Positions 1-56,936 of a stretch of 64,000 nucleotides of DNA are shown in pieces. This DNA comes from Neisseria subflava (GTDB taxonomy: Bacteria; Pseudomonadota; Gammaproteobacteria; Burkholderiales; Neisseriaceae): positions 248,001 through 312,000 of the forward strand of contig NZ_POXP01000003.1 of NCBI RefSeq assembly GCF_003044935.1, given 5' to 3'. Under the pieces are notes generated by a model. That model worked only from the letters and a program-made list of their open reading frames with translations, was not told the origin of the DNA and made no database searches. A program made the translations under genes and the position numbers. Position 1 is the first letter of the stretch. Every line of letters starts with the position of its first letter.

Positions 1-819
1 TTGTCTGATGTTCGAAATTTGCTGCAAAAGCTGCATGATGATGGTGTGAAAGTGAAATTTGTTGAGTTTTATTGCGGAAAAAATTTGACGGTGCTCAACA
101 TTCGTTTCGTAAATCAACCGTTTGGACAAATATTAAGCGAATTGCGTAATTGGTTTGATAAGATATTGTCGGGTGCTGAAAAGGCATGGCAAATATGGTT
201 GCAGGATCATGCCGAGTCCTTGCCGTTTTACCCTGAGAACGCGCCTGACCTGAACTATACTTTTACTCAGTTTGATGTGGAAATGCCTTACAAACCCGGT
301 GATTTTACGCAGATTAATGCGCAGCTGAACGAAGTGATGGTGGCAAGGGCGGTCAGACTTTTAAACCCTCAAAAAGGGGAGCGGATTGCCGATCTGTTTT
401 GCGGTTTGGGCAATTTTAGTTTGCCGCTGGCGAAAAGTGGCGCATCGGTTGTCGGTATTGAAGGCGCTGATTATTTGGTAGATAGGGCAGGGGAAAATGC
501 CCGCCTGAATCGTTGTGCTGAGAATATGACGTTTTCTGTTGCCGACTTGTTCGATACCGATGAAAAGACTGTTGAGTCATGGGGGCAATTTGACAAGATG
601 CTACTGGATCCGCCGAGAAGTGGGGCTTATGCTGTTGTCAAATCGCTACATAAGCCGTTTTTTCCCAAAAAGATAGTATATGTTTCATGCAATCCATCAA
701 CATTTGCACGAGATGCCGGTGTCTTGGTTGATAAGGGCTATAAGTTTAAGGCGGCGGGAATCATGAATATGTTTGCACAAACCTCGCATGTTGAATCCAT
801 CGGTGTGTTCGAGTTGTAA
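1..819 (+). CDS. rlmD: 23S rRNA (uracil-C5)-methyltransferase RlmD, 3' part
   Basis: This is the C-terminal 272 residues of a TrmA/RlmD-family SAM-dependent uracil-5 methyltransferase, which in the family methylates U1939 of 23S rRNA. Visible are the SAM-binding loop DLFCGLGNFS (about residues 131-140 of this fragment), the LDPPRSG motif (202-208) and the nucleophile motif YVSCNPS with its catalytic cysteine near 230. The frame is open to the first base of the window, so the TTG there is not a real start; the TRAM and iron-sulfur N-terminal part lies outside. RlmD is preferred over TrmA from the DPPR and SCNP contexts. Confidence 0.9.
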   Translation: MSDVRNLLQKLHDDGVKVKFVEFYCGKNLTVLNIRFVNQPFGQILSELRNWFDKILSGAEKAWQIWLQDHAESLPFYPENAPDLNYTFTQFDVEMPYKPGDFTQINAQLNEVMVARAVRLLNPQKGERIADLFCGLGNFSLPLAKSGASVVGIEGADYLVDRAGENARLNRCAENMTFSVADLFDTDEKTVESWGQFDKMLLDPPRSGAYAVVKSLHKPFFPKKIVYVSCNPSTFARDAGVLVDKGYKFKAAGIMNMFAQTSHVESIGVFEL

Positions 820-976
820 ATTGGTATCAAGTCCTTTATGTGAGTAGGGTTTTTAATGTAAAAATGAGTGCATTCATGTTATCATCATTCGTTTGGGGAA
901 TGAATAACGTTGAAGTTGCGTGTAAAGCAACAGATGTTAATAAATGCAGTTTGCAGCACAAGACCGGGAGGTGTTC

Positions 977-2419
977 TTGAACTATCAACTTTTAACTATT
1001 TTTTTGCTGGTGCTTTTTTTGCTGGTGTTGTTTTTTGTTCGTCATAAACAAAGTAACAATTCAGACAAACAAAGCGCACATGCATCAAAAAGCGGCCGTA
1101 CATCTGCTGCTCATACAGCCTCCTCTGAGGATGGAAACGACTGGATTGAGAAGGTCAACCAGACAGTTTCCAATGCGGATAATCAAGACTGGGAATGGGG
1201 TGGAAGTGGCTCAAACGATGCAACAGCTTCTATCTCCGCACAAGAAGTCGATCCGTTGACCGAATATCAGGTTTATAAACAGTTCGGCTATGAGAGTAAG
1301 GCTGCAGAGTCTTTGGCCGGTTATCTCAATACTTTGGAAGACGGTGCTCCGGAAAAGCTGGTTCATGAATTAATTGGTTTGAATCTGCGAGTTGGCAATA
1401 TCGATATGCTGGCGGATACGCTTGAGCGCCATAGTGCTTCCCTTTCTGAAGACAGCGTAGCCGAATACCTGAAAGCCGGTCTGGCTTTGGATTCTACCAA
1501 CCTACGCCTGCGTGTTTTCGCCGAGCATCATCTCGGTTGGAATATGCAGGAAGTGGACCGTCAAATTGGCGAGCAAAGCGGTTTGGAAGTTTCTTCCGAC
1601 GAGCATATTGCCTTTGAGAACGATTCGGCTGAACGCATTGTCGTGCCAGGTATGGGCAAACGTGCGCCTATCGTATTAGGCAAGAAAGACTTTGGCGAAA
1701 TCAGCCCTGAAGAGATGGGCGCGGTTATTGGTTTTGCCAAACCGGAACGTAGTGCAAAAATCCTGAAAGACAAGATCAGCTACGAGACTGCTTTGCATCA
1801 ATACAACAAAGCAATCCAAACTTCTGCGAAGCCTGCTGGTCTCATTATCGATGCCTTGCGTCTGGATTATCAGAATGAAGAAGTAGGGCAGTTTGCCAAG
1901 CATCTGTGGAAGCTTTACCACTCTTTGGGTCAATATGGCCGTCAAGTAAAAGAACGTATGCTTGGCTGGGGTTATAGCCTTGGTTATCACGAAATTTTTG
2001 ATGATTTGGAAAAAGGGCCGTCTGAACAGCAAATTAAAGAGATTGGCTTAAAACGCGGGTATATTCAGCCAAGTTCTTTGCAGATGAAAGCCAAATATCG
2101 TGAGTTGGTTCAAAAAGACTCTTCGGTTATCAGCGCCAGCTCTTCACCTGCTGATGAAGCTCTGAAAGAAGTGGAATCTTTGTTAGCCTACGGTCAGTTG
2201 GATTTGGCCATCGGTACTTTGGAACAGGCTGTTTTGCGGTATCCACAGGAATCGCAGTTGTACATTATCTTGTTTGATTTGTACGAACGCGTTGAAGATT
2301 GGGGACGTTTGGAACAATTTCTGCGCTTGTTGCGCGAGCGTGTTGTCAGCCTGCCTGAAGAGGTTGTCTTGGCAATGAGCCGTCTCTTGCAACGAATGAA
2401 CCAATATTCAAAAAAATAA
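977..2419 (+). CDS. FimV-like membrane-anchored TPR protein
   Basis: Membrane protein of about 480 residues, first gene of a unit with a small GTPase and a Roadblock protein. The start is placed at TTG 977 because GGGAGG at 966-971 sits 5 bases before it and it puts one hydrophobic helix (LLTIFLLVLFLLVLFFV) at the N-terminus; ATG 944 is a longer alternative in the same frame with no clear ribosome site. After a polar linker, a DPLTEYQVYKQFGYESKAAE segment resembles the repeat found in the cytoplasmic part of FimV/HubP pole organisers. The C-terminus (about 390-460) is a TPR-like helical pair. I infer a scaffold at the inner membrane; function is not established. Confidence 0.75.
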   Translation: MNYQLLTIFLLVLFLLVLFFVRHKQSNNSDKQSAHASKSGRTSAAHTASSEDGNDWIEKVNQTVSNADNQDWEWGGSGSNDATASISAQEVDPLTEYQVYKQFGYESKAAESLAGYLNTLEDGAPEKLVHELIGLNLRVGNIDMLADTLERHSASLSEDSVAEYLKAGLALDSTNLRLRVFAEHHLGWNMQEVDRQIGEQSGLEVSSDEHIAFENDSAERIVVPGMGKRAPIVLGKKDFGEISPEEMGAVIGFAKPERSAKILKDKISYETALHQYNKAIQTSAKPAGLIIDALRLDYQNEEVGQFAKHLWKLYHSLGQYGRQVKERMLGWGYSLGYHEIFDDLEKGPSEQQIKEIGLKRGYIQPSSLQMKAKYRELVQKDSSVISASSSPADEALKEVESLLAYGQLDLAIGTLEQAVLRYPQESQLYIILFDLYERVEDWGRLEQFLRLLRERVVSLPEEVVLAMSRLLQRMNQYSKK

Positions 2420-2439
2420 GATAATCGTAGAAAGTACGA

Positions 2440-3546
2440 GTGATGAATAATCATTTACCAAAAATTAAAACCATACGGGTTATGTTACAGGAGATGGGTG
2501 AGCAACAGCAGGCGGTATTCCGTATGGCATTTAAAATGCACAATACGACGAATTACGTCATCGTTTCTCCTGATTCTGATGAAAGACCGGATTTGGTATT
2601 GGTTGATACCGATACTCCGGCAGGTGTAGAAGCTTGGAAAGAGTCGAAGAAAACTTATCCGCAAGTGCCTGTGGCAATGTTTTCTTCTGAATTGCCAACC
2701 GTAACGACTCCTTATTTGGCTAAACCGGTTAAATTCGATACCTTGTTTCCTGTTTTGCGCAGCCTGGCTCAGGGCGGGAATGTTTTTGAGCCGTCTGAAC
2801 AACAAGCGGCTGAAGAGAATAAAAGACAATCCAATTCCGATGGTACAAGAAAAGCAACCATTCGCCGATTTAATCCAAATAAAGGCTTGTTGGGCGCGCT
2901 GAAATTTGCCAGTCAAGGACACCAAGATATTGCTGTCTTGCATGAAGGCAAGCCGATATTAATCGTGTTTCCTAGTATCCAGAGAGTGCTGTTGACAGTC
3001 AGTGCCAATGAGTTGGAGAAATTGTGTAAGAACGATAACTTGGCTGTTGTGTGTAAGGCTGTTCCTGATAATCCTCAATGGAAAGAAAAAGCCAAAGTCA
3101 CCATTATGTCATGCTTGTGGCAAATGGCTATTTGGACTGCATCAGGCCGTCTGATTTATCCGATGACGCCGCAAACTGTCTTTACACTCAAGCGGTGGCC
3201 AAACTTAACCCGTTTGGCGCATGTTCCGGAATCTATGCGTTTGTCGGCATTTCTGACGAAAACATCTGTTAATCTGAACATCCTCTATAAAGTCATGCCT
3301 TTAGAAATGCCTGATATTTTGAATTATTTATCGGCAACATATCTGACAGGCTTTTTAGCGACAGATACAGAGTTTGCAACTGATGCGAACAATACGCCTT
3401 CGTTGAACGAACAGATTGATGTGAATAGCAAAGACGTACCTGAAACAGCGATGAGCAAAGAGGCTCAAAAAATTGCCGGTCCGTCGAAAGAACAACCTCG
3501 CGGCCTGTTGCAACGCCTGATGCGTAAGTTGCTGGGCAAATCGTAA
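2440..3546 (+). CDS. Receiver-like protein in GTPase/Roadblock operon
   Basis: Protein of 368 residues without a family I can name firmly. Residues about 10-110 read like a CheY-type receiver fold: a VLVDTD strand end where the phospho-acceptor would be, and LAKPVK near the conserved lysine-proline. The acidic pair expected near the N-terminus is not evident, so it may be a pseudo-receiver. A charged linker (about 120-145) leads to a second domain (145-315), then a low-complexity tail ending in RLMRKLLGKS. It begins 21 bases after the FimV-like gene and ends 11 bases before the GTPase gene. A role as adaptor of the GTPase module is inference. Confidence 0.7.
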   Translation: MMNNHLPKIKTIRVMLQEMGEQQQAVFRMAFKMHNTTNYVIVSPDSDERPDLVLVDTDTPAGVEAWKESKKTYPQVPVAMFSSELPTVTTPYLAKPVKFDTLFPVLRSLAQGGNVFEPSEQQAAEENKRQSNSDGTRKATIRRFNPNKGLLGALKFASQGHQDIAVLHEGKPILIVFPSIQRVLLTVSANELEKLCKNDNLAVVCKAVPDNPQWKEKAKVTIMSCLWQMAIWTASGRLIYPMTPQTVFTLKRWPNLTRLAHVPESMRLSAFLTKTSVNLNILYKVMPLEMPDILNYLSATYLTGFLATDTEFATDANNTPSLNEQIDVNSKDVPETAMSKEAQKIAGPSKEQPRGLLQRLMRKLLGKS

Positions 3547-3556
3547 AGGACACGTC

Positions 3557-4093
3557 ATGAAAGAAAATAAAATTATCTTTACCGGTCCTGTCGGCGTAGG
3601 TAAAACCACTGCAATTTCAGCTTTATCTGATGAACCGCCGGTTCAAACCGATGCATCCGCATCCGATATGACACTTGTCCGCAAGGGGTACACGACTGTG
3701 GCAATGGACTACGGTGTCATTCATTTGGATGAGGAAACCAAGGTTCACCTTTATGGTACGCCTGGTCAGGAGCGTTTTAATTTCATGTGGGAAATTCTGA
3801 GCCAAGGCAGCATGGGCTTGGTACTTCTTTTAGATAATACAAGAAGTAACCCATTGAAAGACTTGCAATTTTTCTTGGATGCATTCCGGGAGTTGCTGAA
3901 AAAAGCGCCTCTGGTTGTAGGGGTAACGAAGATGGATATCCGATCCTTACCAAGCGTGGATGTTTATCAAAAGTATTTAGCACAGAATAATTTTAATGTA
4001 CCGGTTTTTGAGATTGATGCGCGTCGAGAAGACGATGTAAAACAATTGGTTACTGCCATGTTGTTCTCAATTGACCCCGGATTAGAGGTATAA
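3557..4093 (+). CDS. Small Ras-like GTPase (COG2229/CvnD-MglA type)
   Basis: Single-domain GTPase of 178 residues. The P-loop GPVGVGKT is at residues 10-17, the G3 region GTPGQERF at 67-74 and the base-specificity motif TKMD at 124-127. The G3 motif lacks the usual aspartate of DxxG (Tyr-Gly-Thr-Pro-Gly instead), a trait I associate with the prokaryotic GTPase family that includes conservon protein CvnD and is related to MglA. Such GTPases are usually paired with Roadblock/LC7 proteins acting as GAP or scaffold, and one lies 680 bases downstream. It starts 10 bases after the preceding gene and is 1 base from the next, so translation is probably coupled. Confidence 0.85.
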   Translation: MKENKIIFTGPVGVGKTTAISALSDEPPVQTDASASDMTLVRKGYTTVAMDYGVIHLDEETKVHLYGTPGQERFNFMWEILSQGSMGLVLLLDNTRSNPLKDLQFFLDAFRELLKKAPLVVGVTKMDIRSLPSVDVYQKYLAQNNFNVPVFEIDARREDDVKQLVTAMLFSIDPGLEV

Positions 4094-4094
4094 G

Positions 4095-4736
4095 ATGGAA
4101 GCGACACTCTCTTTACAAGCAAATTTATATCCTAAGATTACACCGGCGGGTGCGTATTATGCTGTTTCAAGTGATACGCCCAGTGCCAGCAGAACTTTAT
4201 TGTATGGTCTGTTGCGTGCAGAGCCGTCTGAAACCATCAGCAGTGAAAAACTTTTGGCGTGGGCAGACACCAGCGATATCAATACCGCTTTAAACCTGTT
4301 GTATCGTCTCCAACGCTTGGAGTTTTTGTACGGTGATGAGGAAATCAGCACAGAGGACATCCATCTGACTGACGAACAATTACCGACATTATTGGAACAG
4401 TTGTCTAATTCTGGCAAAGCTTTGTTGGCTGATGAAAACGGTTTGTATTTTGCCAATGCTAATTTCCATCATGAGGCAGCAGAAGAATTGGGCCTTTTGG
4501 CGAGCGAAGTGGCCAAAATGGAAGACAATCACCGTCTTTTGATTCGCAATAACCTGCATATCAATAATAGCGCATGGGGTATTTGTGATCCTTCAGGCCA
4601 AAGTGAATTGACCTTTTTCCCTCTGTATATTGGCATGACCAAGCTGATTTTGGTAATTGGCGGAATGCCTGACTTAAATAAAGAGGCTTTTGTTACTTTG
4701 GTTAAAGTGCTGTACCACCGATACGGCAGCCGTTGA
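4095..4736 (+). CDS. Uncharacterised protein in GTPase/Roadblock operon
   Basis: Protein of 213 residues with no family recognised. It begins one base after the GTPase stop codon. Residues about 1-95 are helical and could be a winged-helix-like unit. The C-terminal half (about 110-213) runs LLADENGLYFANANF, then a helix, then strand pairs ending LILVIGGMPDL and a helix, an order of elements that resembles a divergent Roadblock/longin fold. It could therefore be a second regulator of the GTPase, comparable in position to CvnC of conservons. This is a reading of pattern only; a structure prediction would decide. Confidence 0.7.
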   Translation: MEATLSLQANLYPKITPAGAYYAVSSDTPSASRTLLYGLLRAEPSETISSEKLLAWADTSDINTALNLLYRLQRLEFLYGDEEISTEDIHLTDEQLPTLLEQLSNSGKALLADENGLYFANANFHHEAAEELGLLASEVAKMEDNHRLLIRNNLHINNSAWGICDPSGQSELTFFPLYIGMTKLILVIGGMPDLNKEAFVTLVKVLYHRYGSR

Positions 4737-4775
4737 TTTTTGCCTGACCGATATTTATTTTAGAATGGAGCGACT

Positions 4776-5135
4776 ATGCAACAACTATTAATCTCTGTAT
4801 TAAGCGATTTGAACAATACCTCTGCTGATATCACTGCTTCTGCAGTTATTTCTACAGACGGCCTGCCGATCGCAACCATGCTGCCTTCCCACCTGAATGC
4901 AGACCGTGTAGGTGCGATGTCAGCAACGCTTTTGGCATTGGGCAATCGTTCCGTACATGAGCTGGCTTGCGGTGAGTTGGATCAGGTAATGGTTAAAGGT
5001 AAAAATGGCTATATTCTGTTGAGTCAAGCAGGTGAAAATGCAGTATTGGCATTGATGGCAAAAGAAAGCGGTAAATTGGGCTTGATTTTGTTGGATGCGA
5101 AACGTGCGGCTAAACAAATTTCTGAAATCTTATAA
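4776..5135 (+). CDS. Roadblock/LC7 domain protein
   Basis: Small protein of 119 residues made of one Roadblock/LC7 domain: an N-terminal helix (QQLLISVLSDLNN), a strand carrying STDGLPIATMLP, a central helix (DRVGAMSATLLALGNRSVHEL) and the closing strands LILLDAKRA. Roadblock proteins such as MglB and CvnB bind Ras-like GTPases and regulate their nucleotide state. The start ATG 4776 has GGAG at 4766-4769. This is the last gene of the five-gene unit; the DNA after it turns AT-rich and reaches a tRNA gene. Confidence 0.88.
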   Translation: MQQLLISVLSDLNNTSADITASAVISTDGLPIATMLPSHLNADRVGAMSATLLALGNRSVHELACGELDQVMVKGKNGYILLSQAGENAVLALMAKESGKLGLILLDAKRAAKQISEIL

Positions 5136-5191
5136 AATTTTTATAAATTAAAAAGATATAAAAATATTTTTGTTTTTATATAGATTGTTGC

Positions 5192-5221
5192 TTGACAGGC
5201 TTCTGATATTTTCTATATAAT
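5192..5221 (+). promoter_or_regulatory. Sigma-70 promoter of tRNA-Asn
   Basis: A perfect -35 TTGACA (5192-5197) and a perfect -10 TATAAT (5216-5221) are separated by 18 bases; the tRNA body begins 12 bases after the -10. Confidence 0.85.
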
Positions 5222-5233
5222 TTCATCTTTAAT

Positions 5234-5309
5234 TCCCCGATAGCTCAGTCGGTAGAGCGACGGACTGTTAATCCGCAGGTCCCTGGTTCGAGCCCAGGTC
5301 GGGGAGCCA
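5234..5309 (+). tRNA. tRNA-Asn (GTT)
   Basis: A 76-base cloverleaf. The acceptor arms TCCCCGA (5234-5240) and TCGGGGA (5299-5305) pair, the anticodon loop reads CTGTTAA giving anticodon GTT, the T-loop GGTTCGAGCC is present, and the discriminator G is followed by an encoded CCA (5307-5309). It has its own promoter and terminator. AT-rich accessory DNA begins directly behind it. Confidence 0.97.
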
Positions 5310-5316
5310 GATTTGA

Positions 5317-5345
5317 AAACCACCATCTTGTATGGTGGTTTTTAT
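5317..5345 (+). terminator. Intrinsic terminator of tRNA-Asn
   Basis: A 10-bp stem (AAACCACCAT at 5317-5326 with ATGGTGGTTT at 5332-5341), loop CTTGT, then a T-rich run. Confidence 0.9.
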
Positions 5346-5393
5346 TTTATCTATTGGTTAATATTTTAAGATATTTTGATGATAATTGATTAA

Positions 5394-5537
5394 ATGATTA
5401 CACTTAATTCATCAGCCTTTATAGGAACAAATCATTAAGGTTACACCACAACCATCCATGTGAAAAGTGGAAAAGAGTTTTGGAAAGCTATAAATCGTAG
5501 CAATCCAAAAGATAAAACAATTTATGAAGTAAAATAA
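5394..5537 (+). pseudogene. Relic reading frame, possible polymorphic-toxin tail
   Basis: An open stretch beginning at ATG 5394 is interrupted by TAA at 5436-5438 and continues for 32 codons to TAA 5535-5537, with a tail containing SGKEFWKAINRSNPKD. It reads like the end of a secreted toxin or nuclease cassette. The stop could have arisen from CAA by one C-to-T change. A small gene follows after 17 bases. No homologue is claimed; the toxin reading rests on the tail's style and the tail-then-small-gene order. Confidence 0.35.
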
Positions 5538-5554
5538 TTTATGAAAGGTTAAAA

Positions 5555-5950
5555 ATGATTTACTCAGCAAAGCTAAAAAAAATGGATGAAACAATTGAGG
5601 AATTTGCATATTTTTCTATAGAAAATAACGATCTATATTGTTTCCTTAATTGTTGTCCAATGGCTATTGAAGTAAATAAAGTTTACAATGTGGAACTTGA
5701 CTATTTCATTATTGATGAATTTATATTGGAAGAGGTTAATACAGATGAATCTGTTATTATTCCTTTTGAAAGAATAGGTGATAGTACACAATATAAGATA
5801 ACAGGTAGGCTAGATGGCAATACATTTACAGCTGGAAATATTTGCTTTGAAGATGATGCTCTTCAATTAGAATATTCTTATTTAGATGGCAGATTAATTA
5901 CTTTAACTGTATGGAGATTAAGTATATCCGTAATTTCTGAAAGAATATAA
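5555..5950 (+). CDS. Orphan 131-aa protein, possible immunity protein
   Basis: Acidic soluble protein of 131 residues with no signal peptide, helix bundle or catalytic motif that I recognise. ATG 5555 follows GAAAGG at 5541-5546. The gene is clearly richer in A and T than its neighbours (codons such as AAT, ATT, TTA dominate) and lacks a DUS inside, suggesting recent acquisition. It lies 17 bases behind a broken frame that may be a toxin tail, the usual place of an immunity gene in Maf or CDI-type cassettes. The immunity role is inference; it may also be a lone conserved hypothetical. Confidence 0.55.
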   Translation: MIYSAKLKKMDETIEEFAYFSIENNDLYCFLNCCPMAIEVNKVYNVELDYFIIDEFILEEVNTDESVIIPFERIGDSTQYKITGRLDGNTFTAGNICFEDDALQLEYSYLDGRLITLTVWRLSISVISERI

Positions 5951-5991
5951 TCGTTATATTTTCTAAGAAAATTATTGTCTATATAAACCGT

Positions 5992-6023
5992 GTCGTCTGA
6001 AAAAATCCCAATTTTCAGACGGC
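5992..6023 (+). terminator. DUS-containing inverted repeat
   Basis: GTCGTCTGAAAA and TTTTCAGACGGC face each other across a short loop. It closes the orphan gene's transcript. The two arms differ by one base and match different DUS dialects. Confidence 0.6.
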
Positions 6024-6025
6024 TT

Positions 6026-6180
6026 GAGACCTTAGTAAAAAAACCTAAGTTTTTACCCAGGCATTTAGGGAATTCCTTATAAGAATCTTCTTTCAGCAAA
6101 CCGAACAAACTATGATCAACAAATACATCGACCGATTCCTTTTGTTAAAGCTGGAGAAAGTGATTGATTGGCAGCTGTAG
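6026..6180 (+). pseudogene. Remnant of IS5-family (IS1106-like) transposase, 5' end
   Basis: In frame from 6082 to TAG 6178-6180 the reading gives FFQQTEQTMINKYIDRF and then LLLKLEKVIDWQL. This is very like the first 35 residues of the IS1106/IS5-type transposase of Neisseria as I remember it (HIDRFPLLKLDQVIDWQP). GAGACCTTAG at 6026 resembles the outer end of that element. Everything downstream of the first ~35 codons is missing, so the element is dead. Recognition is from memory and a nucleotide search against ISfinder would confirm it. Confidence 0.65.
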
Positions 6181-6212
6181 GCTGTTTTTAAAAGAAAATA
6201 TGCTGTCAGACT

Positions 6213-6379
6213 TTGCCTTTCTTTCGTCAAACTGATAAACTGTTTGCCATTATTGTTGACCGAGGCATAAATTTTTCATGAAAGACGCAGAGCAGAGTAG
6301 TTGTTATACCGCTTCTTTCCCTTTATTTATGCCCGAAATTTGGCAGTCTGTCCGTTTTAAGCGGAACGGCTGCCTTTTT
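6213..6379 (+). promoter_or_regulatory. Structured leader with terminator before TerC-type gene
   Basis: A weak promoter (TTGCCT 6213-6218, 17 bases, TAAACT 6236-6241) precedes a folded leader. GGCATAAAT (6264-6272) can pair with ATTTATGCC (6325-6333), enclosing about 50 bases that include GAAAG/CTTTC. Next comes an intrinsic terminator: GGCAGTCTGTCCG (6342-6354) with CGGAACGGCTGCC (6362-6374), then TTTTT (6375-6379). The terminator sits before, not after, the gene, so it looks like an attenuator or riboswitch expression platform. TerC-family genes are frequent partners of the manganese-sensing yybP-ykoY riboswitch; I could not match that consensus with confidence. Confidence 0.55.
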
Positions 6380-6403
6380 GTATTTTAAAGGAACGCAATC
6401 ATT

Positions 6404-7963
6404 ATGGATTTCAGTTGGTTGGCCGAGCCGCATACTTGGATAGGCTTTGCCACGCTTCTGGTGTTGGAAGTTGTTTTAGGTATTGATAACCTTGTTTTCG
6501 TAGCGATTTTGGCAAACAAGGTCAAACCGTCGCAACGGGATAGGGCGCGGATAACGGGCTTGGGTTTGGCTGTCGTTATTCGGATTTTCATGCTGGGCTT
6601 TATGGCGCACATCATGACGCTGACGCGTCCTTTGTTTGAACTGGGTGGCTTGGAGATTTCCGGCAAAGACATGATTATGTTTGCCGGCGGTATTTTCCTG
6701 CTTTATAAAGCGACTACCGAGCTGCACGAACGCCTTGAAGGCCACAATCAATTTGCGGTTGCTGAAGGGCAGAAGAAGCATTCTTCTTTTTGGGGCGTTG
6801 TGGCGCAAATCTTGATTTTGGATGCGGTTTTCTCTATCGATTCTGTTATTACGGCAGTGGCGATGGTGGATCATATTGTGGTGGCAATGGGGGCGGTTGT
6901 TGTGGCGATGACTGTGATGATTTCTGCCAGCAAACCGTTGACTGCCTTTGTGGACAAGCATCCGACCGTTGTGATGTTGTGTCTGGGTTTCTTGTTGATG
7001 ATTGGTTTCAGCCTGATCGCGGAAGCCTTCCATTTCCATATTCCGAAAGGCTATTTGTATGCGGCGATCGGCTTCTCGATTTTGATCGAACTGTTTAATC
7101 AGGTTTCGCAAAAGAATGCCCGCAAAAATGACTACATCAGTACCTCTTGGCGTAAGCGTACCGCTGAAAATGTGTTGGGCATGATGGGTATCCGCGAAAG
7201 CATTTTGGCAAAAGCAGGCGATAACGGCGGTGATGACGAGCATTTTGAAGAAAACGAAAAATCCATGATTCGCAGCGTGCTGACTTTGGCGGAGCGTCCG
7301 ATTATGGGCGTGATGATTCCGCGTCGGGAAATCGAGAAATTGGATATTTCCCAAAGTCGGGAAGAACAAAATGCGCAGTTGAAAAATACGCCGTATAGCC
7401 GTTTGTTGGTTGTTGGTAAGGCAGGTGTAGATGAGCCTTTGGGCTATATCAGTAAAAAAGATTTGCTGAACCAGCTGCTTGAATCGGGTGAAATCAATAT
7501 TCAGACGGCCTTGCGCCAGCCATTAATTTTGCCGGACAGTACGACAGCGTTGAATGCGATTGAATTGTTCCGTCAAAGCAGCGCGGATTATGCCTTGGTG
7601 GTGGATGAATTTGGTGCGGTGTTGGGTATGGTGACCATGAAAGATTTGTTGGAAACCATTGCCGGTGAATTCCCCGAAGAATTCGAGCGTGAGGAAGAAG
7701 AGGCTGCTCCAGCCAGTCAGGATGAAACGCTGTCTGTGGATGGTGCATTGGAGTATGTGGAATTGGCTTCCCAGTTAAATCTGCCTGCTCAAGAGGAAGA
7801 CGCGGACTTTCATACTGTTGCCGGTTTGATTATGGAAGAATTGCAAAGTATTCCTGATGTGGGTGATTTCATCGATTATCATGGCTGGCGTTTTGAAGTG
7901 GTTGAGAAGGACGGACAACGGATTGCCCGTGTAAAAATCAATCGTTTGCCGGAAGAAGAATAA
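6404..7963 (+). CDS. TerC-family membrane protein with CBS pair and CorC domain
   Basis: Inner-membrane protein of 519 residues with the layout of E. coli YegH/YoaE. Residues 1-235 form a seven-helix TerC domain with the two signature acidic motifs EVVLGIDN and DAVFSIDS, proposed in the family to bind metal ions. Two CBS repeats follow (about 290-420; GVMIPRREI starts the first, YALVVDEFGAVLGMVT lies in the second), then a CorC/HlyC transporter-associated domain (about 440-515). TerC proteins export manganese or supply metal to secreted enzymes. AAAGGAA lies about 10 bases before the ATG. It sits behind an attenuator-like leader, which suggests metal-dependent control. Confidence 0.88.
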   Translation: MDFSWLAEPHTWIGFATLLVLEVVLGIDNLVFVAILANKVKPSQRDRARITGLGLAVVIRIFMLGFMAHIMTLTRPLFELGGLEISGKDMIMFAGGIFLLYKATTELHERLEGHNQFAVAEGQKKHSSFWGVVAQILILDAVFSIDSVITAVAMVDHIVVAMGAVVVAMTVMISASKPLTAFVDKHPTVVMLCLGFLLMIGFSLIAEAFHFHIPKGYLYAAIGFSILIELFNQVSQKNARKNDYISTSWRKRTAENVLGMMGIRESILAKAGDNGGDDEHFEENEKSMIRSVLTLAERPIMGVMIPRREIEKLDISQSREEQNAQLKNTPYSRLLVVGKAGVDEPLGYISKKDLLNQLLESGEINIQTALRQPLILPDSTTALNAIELFRQSSADYALVVDEFGAVLGMVTMKDLLETIAGEFPEEFEREEEEAAPASQDETLSVDGALEYVELASQLNLPAQEEDADFHTVAGLIMEELQSIPDVGDFIDYHGWRFEVVEKDGQRIARVKINRLPEEE

Positions 7964-54902: not shown

Positions 54903-56936
54903 TTGAAAAAACATCACAATATTAAATTAATTACAGCTTCTATCGCTTTAATGACATCGCTCAGTGCCTCTGCAGGTTTGGGCGGCTTGAATGTTCAATC
55001 TCATTTGGGTGAGCCTTTTACAGGCAGTATCACTGTGACTGGCGAGGAAGCTCAGGCTCTGCTTAATGGCGGCAAGGCCACTATTTCAAATGGCAATTTG
55101 CGCGCGGCGGTACGCAAATCAGGCGATAAAGCAGTCGTTACCATTCGTTCCTATAAAGCCATCAAAGATCCTGTTTTGGTTTTCCAAGTAGGTGTTGGCG
55201 CGCAATCGCGTGAATACACCGCTATTATCGATCCGGCCGGATATGATTCTAAAGATGCTGCATCTGTTCGTACCCGTCCGGCCACTGAATCTCAATCCTC
55301 CGAGCTGACACGCAATGCCCAACAGCCGGCCACTAAAAACAATAAAGCAGCAGGTAATCAGGCAACTCAAGCGCGTAAGGATGTGCAGCGTAAGGCTGAG
55401 AAAAAACAAGTTCAGACGGCCCCTGCTAAAAACGACACGGCTGCACGTTCAGGCAGGCAGCATTTGGTACGTACGGGTGAAACCCTGATTGCCATTGCGT
55501 CCAGTATCCGTCCGCAAGGTATGACCTTGGATCAAACCATCCAGGCTTTGGTAAATGCCAACCCGGATGTGTTTATCGATAATAATGCCAACCGTATGTT
55601 GGCAGGTAAGGTACTGAATATTCCAAACCGTAGCGAATTGCAACGCTTGGTTGCTTCTGCTCCTGTTAAAACCAATACTGCGACAGAAAAAGCCAATGAA
55701 ACCGCCAATGCAACAGAAGCTAAAATAGAAAAACCTGTTGTTCAGCCTGAGGCTCAAACTGAAGCTCAGGTCAAAGATGCTGGCGTAAATACACAGCAAC
55801 AGGAAGAAGTGAAACAAGCTTCAGCTGAACAAACAGAACAAGCAGCATCTGCGGCGGTTAATGAAAATGCCGCATCGACTGTTCCTACGTCCGATATTCA
55901 AGAAGCTATGGCTTCTGATGCTCAAGAGAACGTAGTGGCTTCTGAGCCTGTTGCAACCACTGGTTCTGTCGCAGAGCAAACAGAAAGCGAATCAGACGGC
56001 AATTTATGGAAATGGTTATTGGCAGGCGGTGCAGCCCTTATTGCTGCTTGGTTGTTGTTGAAAGCTGCCGGTAAACGTAAAGACGAGCCGGAAGCGGCAC
56101 CTGTAAGCCGTAAGGATGAAGAGAAGGCTGTACAGAAAAATGTTGCCGCTTCAACTGCTGCGGTTGCTGCAACTAAAGTAACGCCGTCTGAAAAAACTCA
56201 AGACGGTCTGTTTATCGAAGACGATTTTGAAGATGATGTGGTTATCAATGAGGTAGAAGAATCTTCCAATATTGATGATGTCAAACTTGATTTGGGTAAG
56301 ATTGACAATAGTCAGGCAGGTATTCTTTCAGGTGCAGTAACGCATGATGTTGAGACAGAGCAACGTCGTCATGCTGATTGGGACAATATCGAATCAACGG
56401 AAAGCGTGTACGAGCCTGAACCAGAAAATCCGTATCAGCCAGTATCTGTTGTTATGCCTGAACGTAAAGAAGAGCAGGCAAATACATTTGCTGAGTTTGA
56501 TTTGGCGGCAGAGAAAAAGGTCTCCGAGTTAAGAAATGAAGAGCCACTTGAGTTTACGGTAGAAACCCCTGAAGCTTCAGGCGGCCATGCGTTGCCATTT
56601 GATGTCAAGCAAGATCAAGACTTGCAAATTCAAGAAACCAAAGAAGAAGCAGAGAAAGAAGCAGCTGCTTCCGAGTTTGTGATTGAAGAAGGTGCATTGG
56701 AATGGGAAGCTGAAGATGTTTCAGTAGCCGCTGATCAAAGCAATAGTGAAAGAGGCTTTGTTTCAGAATCAGTCGGCATGACTGCACCGTTTGAAGCCAA
56801 ATATGATTTGGCTAAGATGTATATCGAAATCGGTGATCCTGAAGCGGCTCGAGAAACATTGCAAGGGCTGATTGAGGAGGCTGAAGGCGATATTCTGCAT
56901 AAAGCCCAAAAACTGATGAAAGAACTTGGCGCGTAA
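54903..56936 (+). CDS. tspA: TspA, FimV/HubP-type pole-organising protein
   Basis: Envelope protein of 677 residues. TTG start with AGGGGA at 54891-54896 upstream; signal peptide ends at SASA (about residue 24). The FimV N-terminal domain begins GLGGLNVQSHLGEPFTG. A LysM-like domain (HLVRTGETLIAIASSIRP, about 187-245) binds peptidoglycan. An acidic low-complexity stretch, one membrane helix (LWKWLLAGGAALIAAWLLL, about 365-385) and a long acidic cytoplasmic part end in the FimV C-terminal motif YDLAKMYIEIGDPEAARETL. It belongs to the FimV/TspA family, needed for type IV pilus function and known as a T-cell antigen. Confidence 0.88.
   Translation: MKKHHNIKLITASIALMTSLSASAGLGGLNVQSHLGEPFTGSITVTGEEAQALLNGGKATISNGNLRAAVRKSGDKAVVTIRSYKAIKDPVLVFQVGVGAQSREYTAIIDPAGYDSKDAASVRTRPATESQSSELTRNAQQPATKNNKAAGNQATQARKDVQRKAEKKQVQTAPAKNDTAARSGRQHLVRTGETLIAIASSIRPQGMTLDQTIQALVNANPDVFIDNNANRMLAGKVLNIPNRSELQRLVASAPVKTNTATEKANETANATEAKIEKPVVQPEAQTEAQVKDAGVNTQQQEEVKQASAEQTEQAASAAVNENAASTVPTSDIQEAMASDAQENVVASEPVATTGSVAEQTESESDGNLWKWLLAGGAALIAAWLLLKAAGKRKDEPEAAPVSRKDEEKAVQKNVAASTAAVAATKVTPSEKTQDGLFIEDDFEDDVVINEVEESSNIDDVKLDLGKIDNSQAGILSGAVTHDVETEQRRHADWDNIESTESVYEPEPENPYQPVSVVMPERKEEQANTFAEFDLAAEKKVSELRNEEPLEFTVETPEASGGHALPFDVKQDQDLQIQETKEEAEKEAAASEFVIEEGALEWEAEDVSVAADQSNSERGFVSESVGMTAPFEAKYDLAKMYIEIGDPEAARETLQGLIEEAEGDILHKAQKLMKELGA

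What the first reader, a model, noticed from the sequence alone, without database searches (positions are those of the whole stretch)
944..5135. Conservon-like GTPase module with a FimV-like scaffold
Seen: five tightly packed genes encode a membrane-anchored TPR protein with FimV-like repeat text, a receiver-like protein, a COG2229/CvnD-type Ras-like GTPase lacking the G3 aspartate, a 213-aa unknown and a Roadblock/LC7 protein. Known: MglA/MglB and Streptomyces conservons pair such GTPases with Roadblock regulators, and FimV/HubP organise poles and pili. Inference: this is a GTPase switch that may control surface organisation or type IV pili, and the 213-aa protein may be a second Roadblock-like partner.
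Basis: partly seen in the sequence, partly recalled or inferred. Interest (0 to 1): 0.75.

Follow-up and report, generated by a model that had tools for sequence, protein, structure and literature searches.

The report
MglA-type GTPase switch operon
A five-gene operon in a Neisseria encodes a small Ras-like on/off switch with its probable regulators and a probable membrane-bound partner; the switch belongs to a known but little-studied family, and the gene set described here makes its role testable.

Summary
In detail: five packed genes (944-5135) encode a membrane protein of TPR type (A), an atypical receiver protein (B), a Ras-like GTPase without the G3 aspartate (C), a 213-aa protein (D) and a Roadblock protein (E). 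The order holds in 30 of 30 Neisseriaceae loci read; B-C-D-E in 23 of 34 distant loci. It is a Group 3 MglA/MglB module, described in 2014 (PMC4316618) and met in Snodgrassella in 2024 (PMC11112851). It is neither a conservon nor a FimV scaffold; the true FimV lies at 54903-56936. Not found in the texts searched: the TPR gene as a regular member, added protoglobin, PAS and phosphonate-binding-type genes, kinase-GTPase and TPR-D fusions, and broken A-D in N. gonorrhoeae. I infer a switch like MglA/MglB/MglC/RomR/SgmX, acting on type IV pili or another surface function. The pilus link is weak: in Neisseriaceae the GTPase and PilM tend to be lost together, but the wider link is nearly matched by FliG, and gonococci make pili (recalled).

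The parts
944..2419 (+). Gene A: N-terminal TM helix, variable linker, cytoplasmic TPR-type helical part (probable true start TTG 977)
   Evidence: TPR_19 in 17 of 22 homologues at E up to 0.01, window protein TPR_14 E 0.12 only; hydropathy 2.8 at residue 14, TM in 19 of 22
2440..3546 (+). Gene B: atypical receiver domain (10-113) without helix alpha-4, second alpha/beta part with a wHTH-like end (about 140-310), low-confidence linker, conserved C-terminal amphipathic stretch (355-365)
3557..4093 (+). Gene C: MglA-family small GTPase, G3 HLYGTPGQ without Asp, G4 TKMD, G5 DAR
4095..4736 (+). Gene D: winged-helix-like N-terminal part (about 17-81, read from the order of elements) plus C-terminal Roadblock-fold domain (89-212)
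   Evidence: (pLDDT 89.4)
4776..5135 (+). Gene E: single-domain Roadblock/LC7 (MglB-like) protein

Best explanation
This is a complete Group 3 MglA/MglB GTPase switch. Shown: the parts, their folds or families, their conserved order, strong purifying selection. Inferred: C cycles between GTP and GDP; E, as a dimer, is its GTPase-activating regulator; D is a second Roadblock protein that joins B to the E/C pair, much as MglC joins RomR to MglB in Myxococcus, with the C-terminal helix of B as the docking piece; A, held in the inner membrane, is the TPR effector that the GTP-bound GTPase recruits, as SgmX is for MglA. The most likely output is when or where type IV pili (or another surface function) are active, not whether pili can be built.
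For: Families and folds: C is Ras-like, with no G3 Asp and a D[AGP]R G5 in 23 of 23; E is Robl_LC7; D has a Roadblock fold; B has a receiver fold; A homologues match TPR models. Order A-B-C-D-E in 30 of 30 Neisseriaceae loci read; B-C-D-E in this order in 23 of 34 distant loci and 65 of 80 named loci. The TPR partner is fused to D in 2 of 34 distant loci, which suggests contact. The B tail is kept in 23 of 23 although the linker before it diverges. Precedents: MglA-GTP binds the TPR protein SgmX to start pili (PMC7519303, abstract and passages); the RomR C-terminal helix binds MglC (PMC12719032, abstract and start of the introduction); in Snodgrassella a change in the orphan mglB-3 altered colony-edge spreading, and Tn-seq data are said to mark all three mglB genes as beneficial (PMC11112851, passages). 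Neisseriaceae: PilM over cut-off in 50 of 51 genomes with C and 4 of 9 without.
Against: No interaction, GAP activity or phenotype was measured, and no complex was modelled. N. gonorrhoeae, whose A-D are broken in the copies seen, makes pili and twitches (recalled), so the module is dispensable for pili. The PilM result rests on nine C-lacking genomes, three of them under 90% complete, not corrected for kinship; four C-lacking genomes keep PilM, and two of the genomes counted as having C hold it broken (G014, G019). In the class sample the D-PilM link (38 of 40 against 234 of 329, odds ratio 7.7) is nearly matched by FliG (31 of 40 against 161 of 329, odds ratio 3.6), so it is not clearly pilus-specific. 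No pilus gene lies among the genes scanned beside the operon. The Snodgrassella phenotype belongs to an orphan mglB that this genome lacks by Pfam. The B tail has low model confidence. D and E profiles do not find each other by hhalign.
Confidence: 0.5

Rival explanations
1. The module ends in transcription: B (receiver plus wHTH) and D (wHTH plus Roadblock) are DNA-binding outputs controlled by the GTPase, as proposed for Group 3 in 2014.
For: wHTH-like orders of elements in B and D; the 2014 paper reads B this way (PMC4316618, passages).
Against: D's N-terminal part has a mean net charge of -2.6 over 27 homologues (range -8 to +5) and B's wHTH-like end +0.3 over 23; the helix at 290-303 of B reads MPDILNYLSATYLT, without basic residues. 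Winged helices also serve for protein contact (general knowledge).
Confidence: 0.15
2. A membrane-near oxygen/redox or nutrient relay whose output is metabolic or envelope-related rather than pili; Neisseriaceae keep only the core.
For: Related loci add a PAS and a phosphonate-binding-type gene (63 of 80 named loci) or a protoglobin gene (9 of 80); in four loci a Ser/Thr kinase is fused to the GTPase. A globin-Roadblock protein, HGbRL, is known (PMC4476040, passages). The link to FliG is nearly as good as to PilM.
Against: The window has no such gene beside the operon, and none of the three clusters was seen in the 14 non-window Neisseriaceae loci L054-L067 compared. Within the family the GTPase tends to be lost together with PilM.
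Confidence: 0.25
3. A is a FimV/HubP-type polar scaffold and the GTPase places it.
For: A is membrane-anchored with TPR-type repeats.
Against: No FimV or LysM model in the full lists of families matched by 22 homologues (E up to 0.03 and 0.01); hhalign probability 1% against the genome's own FimV at 54903-56936; outside Neisseriaceae 21 of 26 TPR partners are 156-258 aa without a clear TM helix.
Confidence: 0.05

Closest known systems
Group 3 MglA/MglB systems (PMC4316618, 2014) and the Snodgrassella mgl operon (PMC11112851, 2024)
   Same: GTPase without G3 Asp and with the DAR-type G5; partner with receiver-like and wHTH-like parts; one or two MglB-type proteins; beta/gamma-proteobacteria including Neisseria.
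   Different: The main texts of both papers have no hit for TPR or tetratricopeptide (figures and supplements not seen); the wHTH-like part of D, the accessory sensors and the fusions were not in the passages I saw; this genome has no orphan mglB by Pfam, Snodgrassella has one.
Myxococcus xanthus MglA/MglB/MglC/RomR/SgmX polarity module
   Same: GTPase, two kinds of Roadblock protein, a receiver protein ending in a helix, a TPR protein.
   Different: In one operon here; GTPase group and residues differ; A has a membrane anchor and no SgmX family match beyond 1 weak of 22. Likeness of function is inference.
Streptomyces conservons (CvnA-D)
   Same: Roadblock plus MglA-family GTPase side by side.
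   Different: The conservon has kinase - Roadblock - DUF742 - GTPase (domains checked; the one looks alike by annotation). Here no kinase, no DUF742 match, other order.
FimV/HubP (TspA)
   Same: Inner-membrane protein with TPR-type repeats.
   Different: No FimV_Cterm, no LysM; the real FimV is a separate gene at 54903-56936.

Membership tests
MglA Group 3 system | G3 motif without the Asp | tested here: met
   HLYGTPGQ[EQKD]R in 23 of 23
MglA Group 3 system | unusual G5 with conserved Arg (DAR) | tested here: met
   D[AGP]R in 23 of 23, window DAR; motif as described
MglA Group 3 system | G4 often without the Lys | tested here: inconclusive
   Lys missing in 16 of 23 rows, but the window protein has TKMD
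MglA Group 3 system | neighbour with receiver-like N-terminus, variable linker and wHTH-like C-terminal part | tested here: met
MglA Group 3 system | one or two coupled MglB (Roadblock) genes | tested here: met
   E by Pfam, D by fold
MglA Group 3 system | groups with Group 3 in a tree | tested here: inconclusive
   tree of 41 rows open at depth, no reference rows for each group
Roadblock/LC7 (MglB) family, for D | Roadblock fold | tested here: met
Roadblock/LC7 (MglB) family, for D | sequence match over the family's cut-off | tested here: inconclusive
   24 of 27 homologues match at E up to 1, best 1e-4; the window protein does not
MglB GAP function, for E and D | stimulates GTP hydrolysis by the GTPase | not testable with these tools
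   needs protein
Conservon | sensor histidine kinase gene (CvnA) in the cluster | tested here: not met
   none among the eight genes scanned at 1-7963; genes left of the window were not looked at
Conservon | DUF742 protein (CvnC) | tested here: not met
   no PF05331 among the full lists for 23 B and 27 D rows at E up to 1; hhalign of D against a real DUF742 protein gives no alignment
FimV/HubP | FimV_Cterm domain | tested here: not met
   not among all 17 NCBIfam families matched by 22 A rows at E up to 0.03; in this genome it is over cut-off only in the gene at 54903-56936
FimV/HubP | periplasmic LysM part before the TM helix | tested here: not met
   TM helix starts near residue 14; no LysM among all 16 Pfam families matched at E up to 0.01
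SgmX | SgmX family match | tested here: not met
   NF052243 hits 1 of 22 rows (E 0.001), not the window protein
Type IV pilus regulator | phenotype on piliation or twitching | not testable with these tools
   needs mutants

The most novel reading that the evidence does not exclude
A self-contained polarity-type switch of beta/gamma-proteobacteria: TPR effector (A), receiver hub (B), GTPase (C), wHTH-Roadblock bridge (D) and GAP (E) form one complex, into which lineages plug different inputs (protoglobin, PAS, phosphonate-binding-type sensors or a fused Ser/Thr kinase), giving a bacterial sensor-driven small-GTPase pathway that sets surface or pilus behaviour; gonococci have discarded it.
Probability: 0.3. 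Interest if true: 0.68.

Novelty: new variant of a known kind. Interest (0 to 1): 0.45.

Why it matters
Group 3 MglA systems were listed in 2014 and, in the texts found here, hardly touched by experiment. Of 60 Neisseriaceae genomes searched, 51 carry the GTPase, in a simple five-gene operon where read, and commensal Neisseria are easy to transform (recalled), so the question of what such a GTPase does in a bacterium without a Frz-type polarity system becomes directly testable. The broken module in N. gonorrhoeae, nearly identical in the two copies compared, would mark a change in surface control in that lineage.

Tried and rejected
FimV homology of A: no match of A3 with the genome's own FimV or with family models. 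D against E and against B by hhalign, early and with a wider alignment: no significant alignment; the Roadblock reading of D rests on fold and weak Pfam hits. D against a conservon DUF742 protein: none. The Deinococcus gene upstream of its GTPase against B: not significant. Tree of 41 GTPases: deep forks open, long branches meet; it could not place conservon and Group 3 GTPases. PilM co-occurrence in the class sample: looked good (p 5e-4) but the FliG control gives nearly the same (p 7e-4), so I do not use it as pilus evidence. MreB: the GTPase is kept in G003, G004 and G008, which have no match over the MreB cut-off, so rod polarity alone does not explain it. Promoter and terminator scan of the operon: no clear operon promoter; the one perfect site found, at 5192-5221, lies before the tRNA. 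Rows left out: alignments A1 and A2 (23 rows each) left out L002, L037-L040, L042, L048, L049, L051, L057 and L063; A3 (22 rows) the same but with L051 in place of L052 and without L069; A4-A8 are smaller choices from the loci held. Of the 46 places (one is the window), 34 were fetched with surroundings.
Full report
WHAT IS THERE. The window lies in genome G000 (2.16 Mb, 9 contigs, 100% complete by its listing) at C3:248001-312000. Five genes run on the + strand from 944 to 5135 with gaps of 20, 10, 1 and 39 bases. Upstream is the end of an rlmD-like gene, downstream a tRNA-Asn at 5234-5309. The first protein probably begins at TTG 977, with GGAGG five bases ahead and in line with the starts of relatives (my reading).

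CONSERVATION. A search with C finds it in 55 of 100 relatives: 51 of 60 Neisseriaceae genomes (G000 counted) and 4 of 40 others. In the 30 Neisseriaceae loci read (L034-L042, L048-L067, L073), A-B-C-D-E stand in this order in 30; full open frames of all five in 27; A is split in L037, B, C and E in L038 (an 85%-complete genome where rlmD is split too), and A-D are broken in L039. Against the close relative in L048, dN/dS is 0.05, 0.056, 0, 0.015 and 0.017 for A to E. A profile of D finds it in 40 of 369 genomes drawn over the class. Of 34 loci fetched there, B-C-D-E stand in this order in 23 (in L131 and L133 with a protoglobin-type gene between D and E, in some others with a gap); C is absent from the stretch in 9, E in 3. 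In these 80, B-C-D-E stand in order in 65, and a PAS plus a phosphonate-binding-type gene occur in 63 (names by Pfam on representatives).

ADDITIONS OUTSIDE NEISSERIACEAE. A protoglobin-type gene sits in 8 distant loci (cluster 8; Pfam run on two, 9e-26 and 4e-23) and in 9 of the 80 named loci. A Ser/Thr kinase is fused to the GTPase in four loci (L069, L118, L142, L144; Pfam run on the first three). The TPR partner is fused to D in two loci (L119, L150; TPR weakly matched, under cut-off, in L119; L150 not run). Of 26 TPR partners outside Neisseriaceae, 21 are 156-258 aa without a clear TM helix, and 5 are 482-532 aa with a hydrophobic stretch (1.9-3.1 on the 19-residue scale), so the membrane-anchored form is not confined to Neisseriaceae.

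DECAY. In N. gonorrhoeae L002 and its near copy L039, A, B, C and D are interrupted while E is open. I describe this only. A second named record gave the same split match of C. This is not a survey of the species.

HOW IT MAY WORK. The parts match in kind the proteins of the Myxococcus polarity module: GTPase MglA, GAP MglB, second Roadblock MglC, receiver RomR, TPR effector SgmX. In Myxococcus MglA-GTP binds SgmX to start pili (PMC7519303: abstract and passages), and the C-terminal helix of RomR binds MglC, with MglB weakening it (PMC12719032: abstract and start of the introduction). I therefore propose E as GAP, D as bridge, B's terminal helix as the docking piece on D (or E), and A as membrane effector. 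This is analogy; none of it is measured. The 2014 paper suggested gene regulation (PMC4316618: passages); the charge of the wHTH-like parts speaks against DNA binding but does not exclude it.

THE PILUS LINK. Within Neisseriaceae (60 genomes), PilM over its cut-off is found in 50 of 51 genomes with C and in 4 of 9 without (p 1.3e-4); among genomes at least 90% complete, in 48 of 49 and 3 of 6 (p 0.003). The one exception with C is a hit cut off near a contig end (G052). Kinship is not corrected. In the class sample PilM is found in 38 of 40 D-bearing and 234 of 329 other genomes (the 38 judged by E-values far past the cut-off), but FliG in 31 of 40 and 161 of 329, so the wide link may show only that the module lives in motile, free-living genomes. 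In Snodgrassella a change in the orphan mglB-3 alters spreading on soft agar and all three mglB genes are reported as beneficial for gut colonisation (PMC11112851: abstract, passages and one section); I could not match its mglB-1 and mglB-2 to D and E with certainty, and the orphan has no Pfam counterpart in this genome.

KNOWN OR NEW. The core is known as Group 3 MglA. The main texts of the two papers have no hit for TPR or tetratricopeptide (figures and supplements not seen). Searches for Neisseria with Roadblock and GTPase, MglA with MglB and Xanthomonas, MglA with MglB and Neisseria, MglA with methanotroph, Roadblock LC7 with protoglobin, and Neisseria with MglA and tetratricopeptide listed no title that names this operon beyond the papers cited (one search showed 20 of 24); the library holds open-licence papers only. 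Verdict: a new variant of a known kind, moderately interesting, and well suited to a direct test.

Noticed in passing
window 54903-56936: The genome's true FimV (TIGR03504 over cut-off, 677 aa) lies in the same window, far from the finding.
   Followed up: yes
L002 2440-6560; L039 6495-10564: In the N. gonorrhoeae copies seen, A-D of this operon are interrupted while E is open; the two copies are 4067/4070 identical.
   Followed up: partly
L069 9939-11714 (-), L118 1596-3086, L142 7032-8618, L144 9346-10845 (-): A Ser/Thr protein kinase is fused to the MglA-type GTPase inside otherwise similar operons (Pfam not run on L144).
   Followed up: partly
L132 9943-10497, L131 9055-9645; L139 1652-2128 (-); L124 2379-3131: Protoglobin, PAS and phosphonate-binding-type genes (the last apparently without a signal peptide, judged by eye) recur beside the module outside Neisseriaceae.
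   Followed up: partly
L043, L044, L045, L046, L047 (G049, G052, G058): Genomes of two Neisseriaceae genera carry further GTPase paralogues (43-52% identical) without B or D beside them.
   Followed up: no
L003 8001-8501 and L233 9726-10136 (Acinetobacter wuhouensis plasmid NZ_CP033119.1): A plasmid typed as conjugative carries a related GTPase at the record start and a Roadblock gene at the record end, near insertion sequences.
   Followed up: partly
L127, L130, L151 (G200, G245, G417): B, D and E occur without the GTPase in the stretch, with a protoglobin-type gene near in L127 and L151.
   Followed up: no
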